From Oceaniovalibus sp. ACAM 378 (lineage in GTDB: Bacteria; Pseudomonadota; Alphaproteobacteria; Rhodobacterales; Rhodobacteraceae): 37,844 nucleotides of DNA. The notes under the pieces are model-generated. The model saw only the letters and a list, made by a program, of their open reading frames with translations. It had not been told where the DNA came from and did no database searches. The stretch is taken from positions 1 through 37,844 of the forward strand of contig NZ_VSJK01000028.1 of NCBI RefSeq assembly GCF_008085915.1, written 5' to 3'. Below are positions 25,472 through 37,749 of this stretch, piece after piece. Position numbers and translations under genes: made by a program. Positions within the stretch are counted from its first letter, which is position 1. Each line of letters starts with the position of its first letter.

Positions 25472-27256
25472 CTATTCATCCGTTTGTTGGCTTCGAGCAT
25501 AAAGTTCTGCTACCCACGGCGAGTGGTTTCCATCTTGATAAACAATGGACAGTTCTTTCCTGGGGCGAGTTACACCGACATAGAAGAGGCGACGGGCCTC
25601 TCGCAAGCCAGCTGAACTCTTCTTATCACGCGCGCTCGGGATATCTCCGTCGTTCATTCCAAACAAAATAACCGCATCGAATTCACGACCCTTCGCACTG
25701 TGTAGCGTGCTCATGTTGACGCGGCCGCTTCCCAAGATCCTTCCTGCAAAAACATTTAATGGCATGTCCTTTCCGCCAGCAGGATCGGTTTTTTGGATCA
25801 GATCGGCGCACACCTCCCACTCTGCATGCGGGTTCCGCGTCACCTTCTTCCAGCTCCCGATCAAGTCGAGTTCAAATTGCTTCAGCCACGAATGCGTACT
25901 TCCGATAGGTTCTTTCTTTCTTCGGAGGAATGAAATTAGCTGCTGTGACAACAAAGTCTCTTCTGCATCATTCGTCCGACGGTTGAAAACAAGCGATTGG
26001 GCTTGATTAAGAAGGCGTTCGTAAGGCGGATCCGCCTCCCGCCAACCGCCGGTCACCCAGCAAGCGCAAGCTTCAATAAATCGCGCCAATCTTGAGCTGC
26101 GTTTTATCAGAGCGTTTCCGTCGGTGCGAGCATATGGGATCCCCTCGCCATCAAGCGACAGTGCGATTTTGTCGCCAAGCCATGCTGCACGATATAGAAT
26201 GGCGACTTGTTCTCTAGGATGTCGCTCTAGAAGCGCAGGAAGCACCGTCGAAGCAATGGCTTCGGCCTGCCTATCGATCCCTCCTTGCACCTTCCAGAAT
26301 GTTAGTTCCCCCTCCGGCGCGGATTCCGGGCTTCGATAATCACGCTCTTCGCCCAGAGCGCCCATCGACGCACGAATAATCTTTGAACCGGATCGATAGT
26401 TGAATCTCAGCCGAACCACCCTAACATCAGGCCGCGCGGTCAGACTCTGCAGCAGATCAGGATTGGCGCCTGCAAAGCCATAGATCGACTGGTCAGCATC
26501 ACCCACGGCAAAGAGCCTAATCTCAGCTTTGAAGCAAAGCAGAAGCACCAGTTCGTGCAGTGCATGCCCTAGGTCTTGATATTCATCGACGAACAGGACT
26601 GGGAATCGGGCCCTAAGAGCGGAGCGTATCCACACAAAATCCTTGATCAGTCGGAAGGCGATCAGTGGCATGTCTTCAAAGTCAATTAGCCCGCGGCGTC
26701 GAAGCTCTGCCTCGTAGGCTTCAACGAAGTCTGCCAACTCTGGGTTGCGCCCTCGCCAATCCGGCGAACTACGATCAACATCACGACGACGTTTTTCCGA
26801 AGCAAAGCTCCAGCGTTTGTGCGGATCGGCCGCGTCGCTGGATATTGTCGCGTAAGCAGTTTCTACGGCTGCCCGGCACTCTGCAACAGTAGCAACTCGG
26901 AATTCCGTTGGAAGCAAACCTGGAATGCATCTTGCGTAGGGCATTATCACTTGCGTAAGGGCAAAGCTGTGAACCGTGCCTATAAAGCAACGGCCACCGC
27001 CCACTACCCCCAGTGTCGCTAAGCGGCCTTCCAGCTCAATGGCACATTCGTTGTTGTAGGTGATGCAAGCAACACCACGCGGATCCACAACATCTTCGAC
27101 CAGTGCACGCGCCATCGCAGTGGTTAGCGTCTTTGTTTTGCCACTGCCAGGACCCGCTAGGACGATGCAGTGGCCCCTCTCGCGGACAGCTTCGTTTTGC
27201 TCCGGATTTTTTGCGAGTTCGCCCAACGCCCGCGAAATTTCTTGGAAATTAGACAC
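25472..27256 (-). CDS. gajB: UvrD/PcrA-like helicase, Gabija GajB-type
   Basis: 594 residues, SF1 helicase. Motif I is VLAGPGSGKTKTLTTAMARA (residues 31-50), motif II FVDEYQDLGHAL, motif III VGDADQSIYGFAGAN, motif IV region LRFNYRSGSKIIRAS, motif V STLHSAKGREFDAVILFGMN and motif VI RRLFYVGVTRPRKEL. It lies directly after the OLD-type nuclease gene with an 8-base overlap, the GajA-GajB order of the Gabija phage-defence system. In that system GajB is thought to sense or process DNA ends and activate the GajA nuclease. It is cargo next to the island's att site. A generic repair helicase is less likely given the partner. Confidence 0.85.
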   Translation of the reverse strand: MSNFQEISRALGELAKNPEQNEAVRERGHCIVLAGPGSGKTKTLTTAMARALVEDVVDPRGVACITYNNECAIELEGRLATLGVVGGGRCFIGTVHSFALTQVIMPYARCIPGLLPTEFRVATVAECRAAVETAYATISSDAADPHKRWSFASEKRRRDVDRSSPDWRGRNPELADFVEAYEAELRRRGLIDFEDMPLIAFRLIKDFVWIRSALRARFPVLFVDEYQDLGHALHELVLLLCFKAEIRLFAVGDADQSIYGFAGANPDLLQSLTARPDVRVVRLRFNYRSGSKIIRASMGALGEERDYRSPESAPEGELTFWKVQGGIDRQAEAIASTVLPALLERHPREQVAILYRAAWLGDKIALSLDGEGIPYARTDGNALIKRSSRLARFIEACACWVTGGWREADPPYERLLNQAQSLVFNRRTNDAEETLLSQQLISFLRRKKEPIGSTHSWLKQFELDLIGSWKKVTRNPHAEWEVCADLIQKTDPAGGKDMPLNVFAGRILGSGRVNMSTLHSAKGREFDAVILFGMNDGDIPSARDKKSSAGLREARRLFYVGVTRPRKELSIVYQDGNHSPWVAELYARSQQTDE

Positions 27257-29030
27257 GGTCTACAACGAACTGCACTGCAGCAGAGATGTATGCCGGTGGA
27301 GCCAAACCGTCTGGTAATTTCTTCGCAAGTTTAGCGCTGAGGCGACCTTTGCCTATGTCAGCCACCATTGCGAGGAGGTGTGCAGAGTCGACCTGAGTTC
27401 CTGATCGCCAATTGGCGATCCGGGCGCTGCGCGTCGGCCCAAATCCCTGTTCGCCCAGAATATCGAGTAGAGTTGTCTGAAGGCCCGCGGTGTTGGCTAC
27501 TGAGATTTCAAAGGTTAAGTCATTGAGGAAGTATCCTGCCTTTGACGCAGCGGCACTAAACTTCGCGTGGTCACTGGACTCCCATTTTGCCCGTTCCTCC
27601 TGTGTGAACTTCGGACGACCTGTAAGCAATCGCTTGTCGTCAATTAGATCGAGAACGCGGGTCAAACCCAAAGGAAGCTTGCTTCCATCAAGGGGATCCC
27701 AATCGGTGATCACAGAGAATGGAAGGCCGAGGCACGCCGCAAGTTTGACGTAAGGCCGAAAATTGGTCCCAGCAACATTGCAGACTGCGATGCCCAGGCG
27801 GTCAAGATTGCTACCCATTGAGTCGGCGAAGACAGGAACCAGCGCCTCCTCGGCATCACCTTCTACAAAAAGTACCCCACGAGAGAACAATATCTCGGAA
27901 CGGGTCGCTGTGAGATAGCGTTCTATATCTTCTAATTCTTCAGCGGTGACCGGTAGATTTGCCAAAGAGTACGCCTTCGTCGCACCGTCCACAGCCCGCA
28001 GCTGCACAATCGAACGGACTGGGGCAACTGCCGCGAGTGTTGGTGAGTGGCTGGTCACAATAAGTGCTTGGGCTGTATCTCCGTCATTAAACAGTTTGTC
28101 GAACACAGCCCTCTGCAGTTGGGGATGGAGATGTGCTTCTGGCTCCTCGATGCACAGAAGTGAATAATTCCGTTCATTTTTTGCTCGACGCCAAGCGAAC
28201 TCAGCAAGCTTGAGCGCGATAAGGGCAACGTTCGCTGAACCAAGACTGGCTTCGGCGATACCGCGCTTACCGTTGTCGATGAACATCGCAATTGACCGAA
28301 AAAGGCGAAGAGGGTCTGTCGGAGCAAATCGCAAGCGTGCATCAATATCTTGAGAGGTGCCTGCAAGGTCGAGTATCCCAGAACGAAGCGAGGTTTCGAG
28401 ATCCTGTATCGACTGAAAACCCTCAAGCTTTTTTGTTGCGCCTTCCAAGTCTGAGGCGACGGCGTCAAGATCAGCACGGCTGACCGAAGCAATTGCGTCT
28501 TCTAACAAGGGTCTCAGCGGAGAACTCCGCCACGAACCTAACTGTGCTTCCGCGTCGCGAAGTGCATCTAGCATGTCGATAGCAATACGACGGCGCACAC
28601 GATTTGGTATTGATCGCGCCTCATCTCCTCCGCCATAGACGATGAACTCGAAATCCTCCCCAGATTGTGGGGTGCCTAAAACTTCCGGCTTCTTTCGGAA
28701 TACATAACTTAAGCGTGCTATTTCGGGATCTGCTGCTATTCGGAAATCGGTCAGCAGCGCAAGTAGAGCATCATCCGTGTCAAATTCAGCGAAATCTAGA
28801 TGAACCTCAATCTGTGGAGCCGTCGTTAAGTCGCAGCCATCCCAGAAGTCTGAAAGCTTAAGCTGTCGTGTAGAATCTGAGAGCATTGGGTCTAGAACCA
28901 GACGGATTGCAAATAGCAGGTTGCTTTTCCCGACTCGGTTCTCCCCTAAAAGAACAACGTTGCGCGAGAGCGGTACATCTACCGCTTGAAAATTTCGGAA
29001 GTTACGAACGCTAAGATTTGAAAGTCGCAC
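27249..29030 (-). CDS. gajA: OLD-family ATPase/TOPRIM nuclease, Gabija GajA-type
   Basis: About 593 residues from the GTG at 29030 (a TTG at 29093 would add 21 poorly conserved residues). N-terminal ABC-type ATPase: LSVRNFRNF, Walker A GENRVGKSNLL at 29-39, signature region LGSANVALIALKLAEF, Walker B LLCIEEPEAHLHPQLQ and H-loop TSHSP. The C-terminal TOPRIM nuclease has LFVEGDAEEALVPVFAD (catalytic Glu) and the acidic VITDWDP. Class 2 OLD proteins paired with a UvrD-like helicase are GajA of Gabija, a site-specific DNA-nicking nuclease held back by nucleotides and released when phage infection depletes them. First gene of the pair. Confidence 0.85.
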   Translation of the reverse strand: MRLSNLSVRNFRNFQAVDVPLSRNVVLLGENRVGKSNLLFAIRLVLDPMLSDSTRQLKLSDFWDGCDLTTAPQIEVHLDFAEFDTDDALLALLTDFRIAADPEIARLSYVFRKKPEVLGTPQSGEDFEFIVYGGGDEARSIPNRVRRRIAIDMLDALRDAEAQLGSWRSSPLRPLLEDAIASVSRADLDAVASDLEGATKKLEGFQSIQDLETSLRSGILDLAGTSQDIDARLRFAPTDPLRLFRSIAMFIDNGKRGIAEASLGSANVALIALKLAEFAWRRAKNERNYSLLCIEEPEAHLHPQLQRAVFDKLFNDGDTAQALIVTSHSPTLAAVAPVRSIVQLRAVDGATKAYSLANLPVTAEELEDIERYLTATRSEILFSRGVLFVEGDAEEALVPVFADSMGSNLDRLGIAVCNVAGTNFRPYVKLAACLGLPFSVITDWDPLDGSKLPLGLTRVLDLIDDKRLLTGRPKFTQEERAKWESSDHAKFSAAASKAGYFLNDLTFEISVANTAGLQTTLLDILGEQGFGPTRSARIANWRSGTQVDSAHLLAMVADIGKGRLSAKLAKKLPDGLAPPAYISAAVQFVVDRV

Positions 29031-29253
29031 TAAAGTTTCCGATTCATTTTGTATTGTCCGCTCAGCTTGGGCTTCGCCTAATGAGAGAGTCAACGTGCCG
29101 ATGAAGCCCGTAGACCAGCATGATGGAAAAGCTTAGACAAATGGTCCCCCACCAGACCCACAAACAGGTTTTAAACTTAATCGCAGCCACTCCACACCTG
29201 CCTGAATTTTATCCACAACTTCATTTCTTCCCCCTCTTGCTCCGAATCGAAGC
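29031..29253. other. Spacer upstream of the Gabija operon
   Basis: AT-richer stretch with no gene. It should carry the promoter for the Gabija operon on the minus strand. The TTG alternative start of GajA lies inside it at 29093. No clear -35/-10 pair was assigned. Confidence 0.35.
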
Positions 29254-30082: not shown

Positions 30083-31348
30083 TCAGGCCGACTTGGCGTC
30101 GCCGTGATCGCCCGCGTCATGGACCAGCCGGGGTTTCGACCGAAACGCAATGGCGACGGCATCGACCCCGGCGCGCAGGGGCGAGTCCATCAGGTGCGCA
30201 TAGCGCAGGGTCGTCTGCATCTGGCTGTGGCCCAGCAGCTTGCCGATAATTTCCAGTGACGCACCGCCACTCACCAGCAGCGAGGCGAAGGTGTGGCGCA
30301 GGTCGTGGATGTGCACATCAGACAACCCGCATGTCTTCTGGATCTGCGCCCAGAATCGGCGCACCTCCTGCACCGGCTGGCCAGGCACATCTCCGGGGAA
30401 CAGCCACGGGTTGCCGCGCGGAACCAAAAGCTGACGCTGGCGCACGATGGCTGCCGTTTCGTCCGAGATTGGCACGCGGTGCGCGCGGCGTTGTTTCGTC
30501 ATGGCGGGCGGCTTTGACCAGCTCATGTGTTCGAGGTTGAACTGTTCGAACTGCGCCTGTCGCACCTCGCCCAACCGGGCACCGGTCAGCATGCACATCC
30601 GGATGATGTCAGCAGCGCGGCGATCTTCCGCAGCATCCAGAGCTGCCGCGAGGCTGGCGATTTCTTCCTGCGATAGAAACCGTTCGCGCGGGGTTTCGAT
30701 GCGCCGATGGAAGCGCTGGGCAGGGTTGTCCTCGCACCATCCCCATTGGACGGCCAGTGTGAACATCTTGCGTAGGACTTCGCCGATGCGGTTGGCGCGC
30801 ACCGGCGTAGGCTTCGCGGGCTGCAATTTGCGCGCCCGGTTGTTGGGCTTGTCCTTGTGCGGGCGAGCCCGGCCCGCGGCAATTTTGGTCAGCAGCTTAT
30901 CGACGTCGGTTTGCGTGATTTCCGTCACCAGTTTGCGGCCCCAGACAGGTGCCACCAGCTTTGCCAGTGCAGATCGCTGGTCGGCGGCACTGCGTTCTGA
31001 CAGCTTCGGCAGATGCTCGGCGCAGTAGCGGTCGATCAGGTCCGTGACGCGAGGAGCCTCACGTTTGGTTTCGCGCTGGGCAAGCGGATCGCCCCCGGCG
31101 TCGATGTCCCGGCGCAGTTCTTTAGCCCGCTCCCGCGCCGCTGATACGGACCAGTCCGGCCAGCGTGCGAAGGTCATCCGGCGCTGTCGCCCGGCGTTGC
31201 GGTAATCGAGCGTGAAGGCCCGACCGCCGCCGCGATAGATGCAGGCGGCAAAGCCGCGCACCTCCGTGTCGAAGATCTGGTAGTCGCGCCCAGCAGCAGG
31301 TTCGGCCTCGCGGAGCACTTTTTCGGTCAGTTTGATGCGTTCGGGCAT
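30083..31348 (-). CDS. int: Tyrosine-type site-specific integrase
   Basis: 421 residues from the ATG at 31348 (MPERIKLTEK; an earlier ATG adds nine residues). It has an N-terminal arm-binding domain of the DUF4102 type (YQIFDTEVRGFAACIYRGG and FTLDYRNAGRQRRMTFARWP), a core-binding SAM-like domain and a catalytic domain with TGARLGEVR (first Arg), VHIHDLRHTFASLL (His-x-x-Arg), LLGHSQMQTTLRYAHL (His and the Tyr nucleophile in RYAH). It integrates and excises the island, presumably at the tRNA fragment 5 kb away; the intervening DNA is the Gabija cargo. The promoter lies in the repeat-rich 31349-31931 spacer. Confidence 0.92.
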   Translation of the reverse strand: MPERIKLTEKVLREAEPAAGRDYQIFDTEVRGFAACIYRGGGRAFTLDYRNAGRQRRMTFARWPDWSVSAARERAKELRRDIDAGGDPLAQRETKREAPRVTDLIDRYCAEHLPKLSERSAADQRSALAKLVAPVWGRKLVTEITQTDVDKLLTKIAAGRARPHKDKPNNRARKLQPAKPTPVRANRIGEVLRKMFTLAVQWGWCEDNPAQRFHRRIETPRERFLSQEEIASLAAALDAAEDRRAADIIRMCMLTGARLGEVRQAQFEQFNLEHMSWSKPPAMTKQRRAHRVPISDETAAIVRQRQLLVPRGNPWLFPGDVPGQPVQEVRRFWAQIQKTCGLSDVHIHDLRHTFASLLVSGGASLEIIGKLLGHSQMQTTLRYAHLMDSPLRAGVDAVAIAFRSKPRLVHDAGDHGDAKSA

Positions 31349-31417
31349 GCGTTGGATCCTTCTTGCATCCGACATGAGGCGTGGTTTCGCCGCACTATCA
31401 AGTCAAGCATGCGGACC

Positions 31418-33763: not shown

Positions 33764-34413
33764 CCTTTCAAAGACCCAACCTCATTCGCAGCGGACGCAT
33801 AAAACGTGCGCTGGGCGTGCAGGCGGCACTGGAATGGGCGTTCCGGATCGAGAAGGCTCAGCTGGAACTGCCCATGCCGAAGGATGTGACCGAGGAAAGC
33901 TTCGGCTTTGGCCTGGAATACGTCCTGCTGCAACGCGCGGCGCTGGGCTGCAAGGTCGACGGCGGACAGCACAAGATGGGCAGTTACACCCATCCCGATG
34001 CCGAGGTGATCGCTGCCACTGTCGCCGGAATGCCAGACCACCTTGGCGGCATCCGCATGGCGATCCGCGTTGCGGAACTGGCTCGCGCTGGGCTGACGCC
34101 CGACTGGATGCCCGGCGTCGTGCCGCGCTGCGTCCCGGTGGAAACGCGGAAAAACCAGCATGGTGTTCGGGCGACCACGGTGGTGGTCGGCACTGAGCGC
34201 GTGCTGACCCGCGGGAAGTGGCGAACGGTGGAGGTCTTGGCCTGTCCTGTTACATGGCGGCCTCACCCGGAGCAGATTGCGTCCGCTCGTCGCGGATATG
34301 ACGATTGGTGGCAGGCGCTAGCCTGGGTGCGGGACGGTCTCGTGGCGGGGAGCATGTTGCGGGATGTCGAAGTGATGGCAGCACTGCCAAAGGTGCGGCC
34401 TTGGAATTCTTAG
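33760..34413 (+). CDS. Island protein of unknown function
   Basis: 217 residues from the ATG at 33760, which overlaps the previous stop (ATGA); an earlier GTG-type start upstream is possible but not needed. The N-terminus is basic and helical (LIRSGRIKRALGVQAALEWA). The middle contains KVDGGQHKMGSYTHPDAEVI. The C-terminus has a Trp-rich helix (YDDWWQALAWVRDGLV). No family is recognised. It ends the island's replication/recombination operon; a small hairpin (CCCTTC/GAAGGG at 34415-34428) follows but lacks a T-run. Confidence 0.8.
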   Translation: MTFQRPNLIRSGRIKRALGVQAALEWAFRIEKAQLELPMPKDVTEESFGFGLEYVLLQRAALGCKVDGGQHKMGSYTHPDAEVIAATVAGMPDHLGGIRMAIRVAELARAGLTPDWMPGVVPRCVPVETRKNQHGVRATTVVVGTERVLTRGKWRTVEVLACPVTWRPHPEQIASARRGYDDWWQALAWVRDGLVAGSMLRDVEVMAALPKVRPWNS

Positions 34414-34767
34414 GCCCTTCACGAAGGGTGGGAAACGGACTTTAGCCGCAGGTGCGAGCCAGTCAGGCCGCGAAGTCGGACGGCGAAATTCAGTCGACCC
34501 CTTAGCCGCGCGTTGCGTTGCTTCGCCGCAAGGCGGCTTCGAGCGCTTCTTGTTGGTTCGTTGGGCTGCGGCGAACGTCAGCTTCCGCGACCGTGCAGAA
34601 ACGTGCCGAAACGCGATAGGTTTTGCCTCGGGGTTCTGACCAAGCTAAACTGTTGATGTGCGGTCGTACCGGCTGGGCGGACGGAAACCGCCGATATTGA
34701 CACTACCCTTGCGGTCGGAGTCTGTGCGTTGCTCAAGACCTCGCCAATACCATGCGGTCCAGGCCCC
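34414..34767. other. Intergenic region between convergent operons
   Basis: 354 bp. It begins with the hairpin at 34415-34428 and has no recognisable gene, only shadow frames. Base composition shifts here from GC-rich island DNA to the AT-richer PLD/pentapeptide operon. Confidence 0.4.
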
Positions 34768-36192
34768 TCAACCCGGCGACCAAAGCGCGATCTTCGACCT
34801 ATCGACGGAACGGTTCTCAAGGTCGTTTGTGAATTCGGCATGCCTTTTTGCGAAGTCTCCTTCTAGGATAAACATTTGCTCAGTGTTCTGAAAAAAAGCG
34901 CCATCCTTAAAATGTGCCGAGCCAACAATATAGGCAACTGCTCCATCTTCATCGTAGAACGCTATTGATCTTGCGTGCACAGTGTTTGAGTAGTTATCGT
35001 GCTCTTTGTAATTGTGATTAGTTTGCAAAAAACGAACCGAAATATTCGCGTTGTCGTCCACATACTTAAGAAATTCCCTAGCCTCACGGGGCTCAATAAA
35101 GTTTCTCTCCTGATTAAGCTCAGAGGCGATTACGAAAGCATCGTCCACTAAAAAAAGAAAATCAACATCAGGGTTATCACGGATAATTGCCTCGAAAATA
35201 CTCGACCTAAATGTAGGAGCAACGATTGTTACTCGGCCGGACTTTCCTACCAATTCACGAATAGTGTCGAAATATTTATTCGATTCCTCGGGAGCAAGAA
35301 AATATCTAAAATGTAAGCTTTCGGATACCTCAAACACAGTCGGCCCTACAGCGCGGCATGTCATGTAATTTTCGGCTGCAAACCAATGTGGCCTTTCTGA
35401 GACGGATTTCAAGAAACTATATATACACTCCCACCAAGGCCGTATTGACCCGTGTGTAGTCTCAGAAATAACGATCCAATCTTCAATATTGGTCCGTAGC
35501 GACTCAGTAAAAAAGTTACCACTGCCAAAAGCTGAAATGTTTTCGCCCACTCCGTTCTCGCTTTTTTCAAACTCCACCATCAACCCTTTTACATGGTGGC
35601 TCACAGGATCGTTTCGGTCGATTTTGTAAGGATAGGTGGCGTCAAAGCACCGTGAACTCACGGAAATTTTTTCATCTGGTAGATAAGGATCACAGCCAAT
35701 TAAATAGACTTTAATTGACCTCACACATTTTGACATCTCCAAAAGAACGTCATCATCCAAGTGCTCGCGACCCACAAATTCGTTTTGTGAAAATATCTCG
35801 ACTTCGGTCACACTCTCGTCACCAATCTTGCAAACGAAATTTTTTATATCTGGACCTTTAAAGTAAGTCGCTGAGAAGATGACCTTTTTGGCGAAGCCGC
35901 GGCCATCTGAGAATTTATAGAATGTTTGAAACAGTTTTGGTGTAACAAATGGCATTCCGTCGCCGCGACGGCAATAAAGGCTCCCATGTGGTGCTGCGAC
36001 AGCGGTACCGTCAAGTGTTTCCTCCTCGCCGGGGTAATTAAAATTACATGTCGGGATGACGCCATTACCCTCCCAAGTCATAATGCTCAGCGGGTCAGCC
36101 GATCCTTGAGAGACAAATGTCATCCAAAAATGCACGCTCAAAAATATCGCGGCATAGGTTGTAAAGTTTACACATTTTTGGATTGACTGCAT
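34768..36192 (-). CDS. Secreted phospholipase D-like protein with two HKD-type motifs
   Basis: 474 residues from the ATG at 36192 (GGGG upstream); an ATG at 36213 adds seven residues. An N-terminal hydrophobic stretch (TTYAAIFLSVHFWMTFVSQG then SADP) looks like a signal peptide. Motif 1, near residue 205, is SHHVKGLMVEFEKS ... GSGNFF: His-x-Lys followed by Gly-Ser-x-Asn, the PLD catalytic pattern. Motif 2, near residue 415, is VHARSIAFYDEDGAVAYIVG then SAH, followed by QNTEQMFIL; the lysine is Arg and the Asn is His, so it is degenerate. PLD-fold enzymes cut phosphodiesters of lipids or DNA. It is co-transcribed with the pentapeptide gene and is AT-rich, suggesting recent acquisition. A cysteine-containing mature domain fits export. 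Confidence 0.75.
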   Translation of the reverse strand: MQSIQKCVNFTTYAAIFLSVHFWMTFVSQGSADPLSIMTWEGNGVIPTCNFNYPGEEETLDGTAVAAPHGSLYCRRGDGMPFVTPKLFQTFYKFSDGRGFAKKVIFSATYFKGPDIKNFVCKIGDESVTEVEIFSQNEFVGREHLDDDVLLEMSKCVRSIKVYLIGCDPYLPDEKISVSSRCFDATYPYKIDRNDPVSHHVKGLMVEFEKSENGVGENISAFGSGNFFTESLRTNIEDWIVISETTHGSIRPWWECIYSFLKSVSERPHWFAAENYMTCRAVGPTVFEVSESLHFRYFLAPEESNKYFDTIRELVGKSGRVTIVAPTFRSSIFEAIIRDNPDVDFLFLVDDAFVIASELNQERNFIEPREAREFLKYVDDNANISVRFLQTNHNYKEHDNYSNTVHARSIAFYDEDGAVAYIVGSAHFKDGAFFQNTEQMFILEGDFAKRHAEFTNDLENRSVDRSKIALWSPG

Positions 36193-36219
36193 CGAAGAAC
36201 CCCATTTTTGCATCGCAAT

Positions 36220-36456
36220 TTATTTGCGCTTACCAATACGGCCACTGCTAAGGCGTTCCCATGCTTCCCAATTGATCTCGTCCCACTCTACACTCTCCCA
36301 GTCCACATCGTCCTGGTTCACGCTATCCCAATCTACGGATTTCCAGTCTATTTGATCGTAGTCAATTTGGTCCCAGTTGACTGCCGCCCAATCTATATTA
36401 TGCCAATCTATACTGTCATAATCTACGTCATCCCAATCTACGTTATCGAAAGACAT
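36220..36456 (-). CDS. Acidic Trp-rich pentapeptide-repeat protein (V/I-D/N-W/Y-x-x)
   Basis: 78 residues from the ATG at 36456 with GAGGAGAGGG upstream. After MSF the protein is twelve five-residue units: DNVDW, DDVDY, DSIDW, HNIDW, AAVNW, DQIDY, DQIDW, KSVDW, DSVNQ, DDVDW, ESVEW, DEINW. A degenerate EAWER and a basic tail (SGRIGKRK) follow. Val/Ile, Asp/Asn/Glu and an aromatic recur every fifth position, which is the register of pentapeptide-repeat proteins (i-2, i-1, i), but with Trp/Tyr instead of Leu/Phe at i. Three coils of a quadrilateral beta-helix would account for the twelve units. It is strongly acidic. The stop is six bases before the longer PLD start, so they form an operon. Function unknown; an immunity or DNA-mimic role is speculation. 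Confidence 0.75.
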   Translation of the reverse strand: MSFDNVDWDDVDYDSIDWHNIDWAAVNWDQIDYDQIDWKSVDWDSVNQDDVDWESVEWDEINWEAWERLSSGRIGKRK

Positions 36457-36784
36457 CACACCCTCTCCTCTCAGTAAATCGTTTCGTCGTGTTGATGGAC
36501 TCTCCGTGTATCCACACATAATCTACAAGGGACTCGCGGTTGTTCGACGTTCATTGGGGATCAATGTGCGGCAGCCCTCGCAGATGCTTATGTACCATGG
36601 TTTACTGAAAATGTCATGTGCGGATACAGTGATTGCATGAAGTCCCTATTGTTATTGGCTGAATGTGTACGACCGAACAATTTTTACTCCCCAGCCAGAT
36701 TTTCCGCGGAGACGAAATCGGTCCCTGCCCAAACATTGCAGGCCGCGTGGTTACCGACAGCACAATCGCACCCATATCTTCGAC

Positions 36785-37321
36785 ATTCAGAGCCTGTCAC
36801 ACAGGCCCCAACAATTCTCCGAGCGCACCAAGTTCGACCACTGGGAGTGCGATTTGATGATGTTTCGGAAGAACATGGCAAGATCAACATCACCTCGCTG
36901 GTCGAGTGGGTGATCCGCTACGCGGTGGTGATGCGCAACGAAGACCGTCTGTCCAAATCGATCACGGAAGCGTTGATCCGGGGGTCTCGCCCTCTGCCCG
37001 CGGGGGCGCGTCAGTCGATTACCTTCAATCTTCGTCCGGGTACCGAGTTCTCGACCTCGCGCCGTCTGAAGGACGGGATCGGAGCGGACCGCTGGTTCTG
37101 TGATCCGCAGGGGCGCTGGCAAAAGGGGGCGGTCGAGAATACCAACAACCAGCTACGAAAGTACCTACCCCGCTCGACCGAGCCGACGGCGCTGATAAAT
37201 CGATATTTTGGGGCGATTCGGCACCGCCTCAACTCCACGCCGCGCAAATCCGTTGGATTTAGAACGTCCGCAGAGGTCTTTGAAAGCGAGCTGCTGGCCA
37301 TTCGAAACGATATAGAACATA
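36785..37321 (+). pseudogene. IS30-family transposase remnant, frameshifted
   Basis: The first part, in one frame, reads HRPQQFSERTKFDHWECDLM and MFRK (first catalytic Asp). One base is missing near 36870, after which the match continues in another frame as EEHGKINITSLVEWVIRYAV, MRNEDRLSKSITEALI, then PGTEFSTSRRLKDGIGADRW (second Asp lost or shifted: family DRGTEF, here NLRPGTEF), KGAVENTNNQLRKYLP (catalytic Glu) and RHRLNSTPRKSVGFRTSAEV. The N-terminal HTH domain is not recognisable. A dead IS30 copy. The open frame from 36616 only partly follows it. Confidence 0.8.
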
Positions 37322-37497
37322 AACAGAATCATATAGTTGCCCCTCTCCGTGACTTAAGTATGCGGTGCAGACAGCGCCCCTTTTGCTCGATCTCCACATG
37401 GCCGTCACGATATCTACGCCACGGCTCTCGTTGACTGAAGAGCGTGTTCGAGTGATCATCTGAAACAAGTGTTGGATCAATCAACAGAGGTGGCGCG

Positions 37498-37749
37498 ATG
37501 TCTTTCATAATGAGATATTTGTGTGCAGTCGCAATCGGTTTTGCTCTTCCCGGTTTTGCAAACGTTGCTTTTGCACAGGAGCTGCCAGAAATTGTGGTAA
37601 TCAGAAGCGCTTCGAACTCCGAATGCCCCAAGCTAGAGTTCGTAGTGAATGGTACATTGCATGGCAACGGAATAGAATTTCGAAATGGTTCCCTTTCAGG
37701 AGTTCCAAGTGGCGCATCAGGGGAATCGCGTTTGGAACTGAAGGCGTGA
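37498..37749 (+). CDS. Small putative secreted protein
   Basis: 83 residues. The N-terminus (MRYLCAVAIGFALPGFANVA then FAQELPE, after an optional MSFI) is a convincing signal peptide with cleavage after AFA or AQ. The mature part is about 57 residues (IVVIRSASNSECPKLEFVVN and GTLHGNGIEFRNGSLSGVPS) with one Cys and no recognised domain. An AGAGGTGG site precedes the ATG at 37498. It could be complete or shortened by a frameshift near the end. The remaining 95 bases to the window end show nothing clear. Confidence 0.45.
   Translation: MSFIMRYLCAVAIGFALPGFANVAFAQELPEIVVIRSASNSECPKLEFVVNGTLHGNGIEFRNGSLSGVPSGASGESRLELKA

What the first reader, a model, noticed from the sequence alone, without database searches (positions are those of the whole stretch)
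36220..36456. Tandem V/I-D/N-W/Y pentapeptide protein: possible new aromatic, acidic pentapeptide-repeat class
Twelve near-perfect five-residue units with Trp or Tyr at every fifth position, Asp/Asn before it and Val/Ile before that. Known pentapeptide-repeat proteins (A-D/N-L/F-x-x) form a quadrilateral beta-helix, and acidic members such as MfpA and Qnr mimic DNA. Here the core position is aromatic, which would make an unusually wide or differently packed coil, or a surface ladder of Trp. The gene has a good ribosome site and lies in an operon in a mobile island. Family logic is known; the aromatic variant and its role are inference.
Basis: partly seen in the sequence, partly recalled or inferred. 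Interest (0 to 1): 0.8.

Follow-up and report, generated by a model that had tools for sequence, protein, structure and literature searches.

The report
Orphan acidic tryptophan five-residue repeat protein
A small bacterial gene encodes twelve copies of a five-residue acidic, mostly tryptophan-bearing unit; it looks like a real gene with no relative found in the collections searched, and its units are predicted to form tiny helical turns, not the beta-helix of known pentapeptide-repeat proteins.

Summary
Window 36220-36456 (minus) encodes 78 aa with twelve tandem pentads [VI]-[DN]-[WY]-x-x; ten are perfect, unit 9 has Gln for the aromatic, unit 11 Glu for Asp/Asn. Units differ at 43% of bases, yet pN/pS is lowest in the sense frame of six, so protein-level constraint is likely. 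A Shine-Dalgarno precedes it; a PLD-like gene, probably exported, follows 6 nt later in frame.

The reading as an aromatic pentapeptide-repeat protein is partly supported: the Pfam match is in register but far below cut-off (16.5 against 38 bits). The best AlphaFold2 model has helical turns at the aromatics and no strands (four of five models were poor). An unrelated marine family with three such pentads, modelled with 40 sequences, shows the same turns at pLDDT 87-89.

No homologue survived reading in plasmids, phages, viral contigs or sampled genomes; pattern scans found only look-alikes. Function is inference: perhaps an acidic partner of the PLD-like protein. Structure rests on prediction.

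The parts
36220..36456 (-). Orphan 78-aa gene: twelve [VI][DN][WY]xx pentads (residues 5-64), then AWERLSSGRIGKRK; predicted helix 63-73 and a basic tail
36457..36472 (-). Shine-Dalgarno region GAGAGGAGAGGGTGTG directly before the ATG
   Evidence: read from the sequence
34768..36213 (-). Next gene, same frame, ATG 6 nt after the TAA: 481-aa PLD-like protein with a hydrophobic stretch at residues 21-35 (possible Sec signal; no signal-peptide predictor was run). First half HxK (H207, K209) with GSGN; second half H413-A-R and GSAH, i.e. R for K and H for N
36616..37434 (+). ORF with an IS30-family transposase match to profile positions 139-267 of 267 only (residues 81-211), so apparently lacking its N-terminal part
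30083..31375 (-). Tyrosine integrase in the same region (context)
25472..29093 (-). Gabija defence genes gajB (25472-27256) and gajA (27249-29093) (context)

Best explanation
A real, translated, narrowly distributed gene for a small acidic solenoid-like protein. Each pentad is [VI]-[DN]-[WY]-(mostly D/E)-x: the Asp/Asn caps a three-residue helical turn that begins at the aromatic residue, and V/I and W/Y side chains pack against each other, leaving an acidic outer surface (turns: predicted; capping, packing and surface: inferred from the sequence, no coordinates were inspected). It has no hydrophobic segment and is encoded just ahead of a PLD-like protein that is probably exported. The most likely role is an acidic cytosolic partner (inhibitor, immunity or pre-export holdase) that occupies the phosphate-binding site or a basic surface of that protein (function: inference). 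My estimates: real gene about 0.85; helical-turn fold rather than PRP beta-helix about 0.6; partner of the PLD-like protein about 0.25 (lowered from 0.3 on re-checking, because export of the PLD-like protein rests on hydropathy only).
For: Gene reality: Shine-Dalgarno, uninterrupted frame, lowest pN/pS in the sense frame. Fold: AlphaFold2 without alignment gives HHH from the third core position in 10 of 12 units; unit 12 starts the C-terminal helix and unit 5 has no turn; block pLDDT 77-80 over residues 21-60. Independent family: in 40 aligned sequences with three pentads the Trp at 103, 108 and 113 are invariant; a model with that alignment gives HHH--HHH--helix starting at those Trp, block pLDDT 89 and 87 for residues 101-120. 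Foldseek finds no PDB chain for the array model at E up to 10. Partner: 6-nt same-frame spacing; a hydrophobic stretch near the PLD N terminus and none in the array protein; 21 acidic to 1 basic residue in the array. The one distant PLD relative (27%, E 8e-11) also has a signal-like start by eye and lies divergently beside a protein with a below-cut-off Exo_endo_phos match.
Against: Only one of five AlphaFold2 models reached pLDDT 69.5; the others were 57.4, 51.9, 50.5 and 50.0. No control with a known PRP in single-sequence mode was run. The order-dependent Pfam match favours the PRP reading. The FecR-like family is unrelated, so its fold is only an analogy. The single PLD relative has no pentad array in the 12 kb fetched around it, so the pairing is not conserved in the one case available. 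The N-terminal hydrophobic stretch of the PLD-like protein (mean hydropathy 1.61) is not its strongest; an internal one at 350-366 scores 1.67-1.69. Its second half departs from the PLD motif, so activity is uncertain. Binding was not tested.
Confidence: 0.35

Rival explanations
1. A true pentapeptide-repeat protein (right-handed quadrilateral beta-helix) with Trp/Tyr in place of the central Leu/Phe, perhaps acting on gyrase or another DNA-binding protein by DNA mimicry.
For: Order-dependent weak match to Pentapeptide_4 and to a Qnr chain in the same register (E 0.33); V/I and D/N/E fit the amended consensus; twelve units would make three four-sided coils, and the aromatic order W-Y-W-W recurs in units 1-4 and 5-8.
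Against: 16.5 bits against a 38-bit cut-off; no strands in the best model; no PDB fold match. By recalled side-chain volumes, W plus V/I per face is about 45-55% bulkier than L plus A, which would overfill the usual coil (inference, no call).
Confidence: 0.25
2. A disordered, multivalent acidic-aromatic linear motif array that binds a repeated partner or phase-separates.
For: Acidic low-complexity composition; four of five models have pLDDT 50.0-57.4; a similar short array sits in the tail of an LCP cell-wall protein (L138).
Against: Strict period and protein-level constraint; the same pentad is modelled with good confidence in the FecR-like family.
Confidence: 0.25
3. A by-product of repeated DNA, translated or not, without function.
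For: No homologue found; repeated DNA elsewhere gives similar peptides in chance frames.
Against: Units are 43% diverged at DNA level while the V/I-D/N-W/Y core holds, and pN/pS is lowest in this frame; the margin over the next frame (0.42 against 0.52) is moderate.
Confidence: 0.12

Closest known systems
Pentapeptide-repeat proteins (Pfam PF13599 and kin; MfpA, Qnr, Alr5209)
   Same: Five-residue period; order [V/I]-[D/N]-[bulky hydrophobic]-x-x is the PRP register; small acidic protein
   Different: Centre is W/Y, not L/F; below the Pfam cut-off; best model shows helical turns and no strands; no PDB fold match
Marine FecR-like family in IMG/VR contigs (L038 and relatives, alignment A1)
   Same: Three tandem W-[DE]-x-[VI]-[DN] pentads with invariant Trp, modelled as the same HHH-- turns running into a helix
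   Different: About 710 aa with a signal-like start; three pentads only; named after a below-cut-off FecR match of one member, L038 (19.1 bits, cut-off 24); nothing links it to the window protein outside the repeat; likely convergent (inference)
LCP (LytR-CpsA-Psr) protein of an uncultured Oscillospiraceae (L138)
   Same: C-terminal tail with in-frame DIDWEKVDWDSVDWSNIDYDTVDW
   Different: Part of a 555-aa LytR_cpsA_psr protein (123 bits); likely convergent (inference)
PLD superfamily (PF13091 PLDc_2), for the neighbour gene
   Same: Neighbour 34768-36213 has two PLD-like stretches and a hydrophobic N-terminal stretch
   Different: It is the neighbour, not the array; second half has R for K and H for N; 24.6 bits against a cut-off of 27

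Membership tests
Pentapeptide-repeat proteins | A Pfam pentapeptide model at its gathering score | tested here: not met
   PF13599 16.5 bits, cut-off 38; the only family listed at E up to 10
Pentapeptide-repeat proteins | Five-residue tandem period with residue order small/aliphatic - D/N - hydrophobic - x - x | tested here: met
   register check with scrambled controls
Pentapeptide-repeat proteins | Central residue L or F (consensus in PMC7337050, passages read) | tested here: not met
   0 of 12 units have L/F: 9 W, 2 Y, 1 Q
Pentapeptide-repeat proteins | Right-handed quadrilateral beta-helix | tested here: inconclusive
   Best model has no strands and no PDB match, but it is a single-sequence prediction with one good model of five and no PRP control
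Pentapeptide-repeat proteins (MfpA/Qnr type) | DNA gyrase binding or protection | not testable with these tools
   Needs protein
PLD superfamily (neighbour gene) | Two HxK...GSxN halves | tested here: inconclusive
   First half has HVK and GSGN, second has H-A-R and GSAH; the relative L173 has HLK and GSAN in its second half
Enzyme with cognate inhibitor or immunity protein | Small gene kept next to the enzyme gene across genomes | tested here: inconclusive
   Only one PLD relative was found (1 other of 378 genomes); no run of two or more pentads in the 12 kb around it. One case against, too few to decide

The most novel reading that the evidence does not exclude
The array is a new minimal solenoid class in which every five residues make one Asp-capped helical turn led by a buried Trp/Tyr. 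The same solution arose separately in at least three unrelated contexts (this gene, the marine FecR-like family, perhaps the LCP tail, whose fold was not modelled), and here a whole protein consists of it and acts as an acidic surface mimic.
Probability: 0.3. Interest if true: 0.65.

Novelty: new variant of a known kind. Interest (0 to 1): 0.4.

Why it matters
If the helical-turn model is right, this is a solenoid with a very short repeat and a different folding logic from the pentapeptide beta-helix, although the sequence pattern looks alike; profile searches could then confuse two folds. It would also offer a simple Trp-bearing scaffold for folding studies. If instead it is a beta-helix with an aromatic core, it would break the rule, as given in PMC7337050, that the centre is Leu or Phe. 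A CD spectrum should help to separate the two.

Tried and rejected
Homologue hunts for the array that led nowhere: tblastn in plasmids and phages (no match, but BLAST's low-complexity filter may hide matches); viral contigs by peptide patterns (13 stretches, none confirmed); whole genomes: relatives (1 other of 61 genomes), family (4 others of 394), phylum (2 others of 378); these samples overlap. The matches of these 7 genomes were read: repeated or low-complexity sequence, several in frames with no sign of being a gene. Own genome: one further match, E 0.77, 17 residues, read; rejected.

In 77 of 120 the match lies in a frame of at least 350 aa, and the contexts look like one family; one member (L038) was run against Pfam (FecR, below cut-off). 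The other 43 lie in shorter frames and were judged only by eye. Trp-Tyr-Trp in genome contigs gave 6 stretches, 1 of 6 in a long gene; in viral contigs 1, a 21-residue frame. A four-unit degenerate pattern in viral contigs gave 31 stretches, none that I judged a credible gene. The scans need exact unit patterns, so diverged arrays can be missed; the record of the window's own genome may be left out of those collections.

Weak family matches set aside: PD-Lambda-5_A E 0.025, phrog_1626 E 0.12; for the PLD-like neighbour RE_NgoFVII E 0.22 and a nanobody chain E 0.22. PEX5 'aromatic pentapeptide repeats' (search listing only) are a different motif (WxxxF/Y; PEX5 itself partly recalled). Ribosomally made modified-peptide precursor: considered because of the repeated aromatic core; no modifying enzyme showed in the genes scanned, but not every gene of the window was scanned. 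One gene made of array plus PLD: set aside, because the PLD-like protein has its own hydrophobic N-terminal stretch and its relative has a signal-like start. The bounds of the mobile region were not mapped; ARAGORN found no tRNA in the window.

Not in print: searches of the open-licence library listed nothing that looked like an aromatic pentapeptide solenoid of this kind; I saw listings only (10 of 12 papers), except passages of PMC7337050. Subscription journals are mostly not held.

Full report
The observation. Window 36220-36456 on the minus strand encodes 78 residues, MSFDNVDWDDVDYDSIDWHNIDW..., with twelve in-register pentads. V/I holds in 12 of 12 units, D/N in 11 of 12, W/Y in 11 of 12; ten units are perfect, and units 1-8 are consecutive. 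Shuffling the same residues 200,000 times gave a longest run of 3 (3 times) against 8 observed.

Is it a gene? The units differ at 43% of bases on average and Tandem Repeats Finder lists no array there, so it is not a recent minisatellite. Among the six frames pN/pS between units is lowest in the sense frame (0.42 over all pairs; next 0.52), the open antisense frame has 0.83, and third codon positions are on average the most variable (permutation p = 0.012). These tests use twelve related units and are modest in power. A clear Shine-Dalgarno precedes the ATG. Six bases after the TAA, in the same frame, starts the 481-aa neighbour. The promoter scan of 34400-37500 found 3 sites against 3.4 in shuffles, so no promoter is claimed.

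Surroundings. The neighbour has two PLD-like stretches (PF13091, 24.6 bits, cut-off 27), a hydrophobic stretch at residues 21-35, HVK/GSGN in the first half and HAR/GSAH in the second. No signal predictor was run, so export is inferred. Besides the own genome, one relative was found in 378 phylum-wide genomes (E 8e-11), none in 385 class (E up to 1e-5) or 394 family genomes, and none in plasmids, phages or viral contigs. The genome samples overlap. The relative, 443 aa, begins with a signal-like stretch by eye, scores 55 bits for PLDc_2, and lies divergently beside a protein with a below-cut-off Exo_endo_phos match; the 12 kb around it hold no run of two or more pentads. Elsewhere in the window lie a tyrosine integrase, Gabija gajA and gajB and a partial IS30 transposase match, in line with a mobile region. 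Plasmid matches, all to small parts of the window, point to Rhodobacteraceae relatives (inference).

Relatives of the array. None survived reading (with 12, 22, 26, 68). The exact Trp-Tyr-Trp pattern gave 6 stretches in genome contigs, 1 of 6 in a long gene, the tail of an LCP protein. The exact Trp-Trp-Trp pattern in viral contigs, capped at 120 stretches, mainly finds a FecR-like family (77 of 120 in frames of 350 aa or more); the name rests on one below-cut-off Pfam match.

Fold. The single-sequence AlphaFold2 model (mean pLDDT 69.5 for the best of five; the others 50.0-57.4) shows three-residue helical turns from the third core position in 10 of 12 units, a helix from the last Trp, no turn in unit 5, and no strand. 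Foldseek gives no PDB match at E up to 10 and one viral match at E 8. To test the local rule independently I aligned 40 of the 63 distinct FecR-like regions and modelled one: the pentads form the same HHH--HHH-- turns at block pLDDT 89 and 87, three Trp are invariant, and the last turn again runs into a helix. Foldseek found no PDB match for that model better than E 3.1. This supports, but does not prove, an Asp/Asn-capped helical turn as the meaning of the pentad; I did not see coordinates. The PRP reading keeps some support from the order-dependent, sub-threshold Pfam match and a Qnr match at E 0.33. An idealised repeat found no PDB sequence at E up to 10.

How it most likely works. Shown: an acidic-aromatic pentad gene that looks constrained, without a hydrophobic segment, directly before a PLD-like gene in the same frame. 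Predicted: helical turns at the aromatics. Inferred: a compact solenoid with an acidic surface that binds the basic or phosphate-binding surface of the PLD-like protein in the cytosol. The last step has no direct evidence, and the pairing is not seen in the one relative.

Verdict. A genuine oddity, small and orphan. The PRP label should not be applied: two defining features were tested and not met, while the register is PRP-like. Its novelty lies in the repeat and its predicted fold; function is open.

Noticed in passing
25472-29093: Gabija anti-phage system (gajA, gajB) near a tyrosine integrase at 30083-31375.
   Followed up: partly
34768-36213: PLD-like protein whose second half has R for the catalytic Lys and H for the Asn of the PLD motif (motif recalled), unlike its relative in L173; possibly one working half.
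   Followed up: partly
36448-36467 and 37487-37506: 20-nt inverted repeat, 80% complementary: both arms hold the ribosome-site and ATGTCTTTC start, one of the array gene, the other of a small ORF at 37498-37749 (+) with a signal-like start; the IS30-like ORF lies between.
   Followed up: no
L038 and 76 other viral-contig loci: Marine FecR-like family with three Trp pentads, rich in Trp, Asp and Tyr; held in IMG/VR but looks like a cellular secreted protein.
   Followed up: partly
L138 2310-3974: LCP protein of an uncultured Oscillospiraceae with a five-unit [VI]-D-[WY] array in its C-terminal tail.
   Followed up: partly
L173 2704-3690: Exo_endo_phos-like protein (below cut-off) with a signal-like start, divergent from the PLD relative: possible pair of exported phosphodiesterases.
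   Followed up: no
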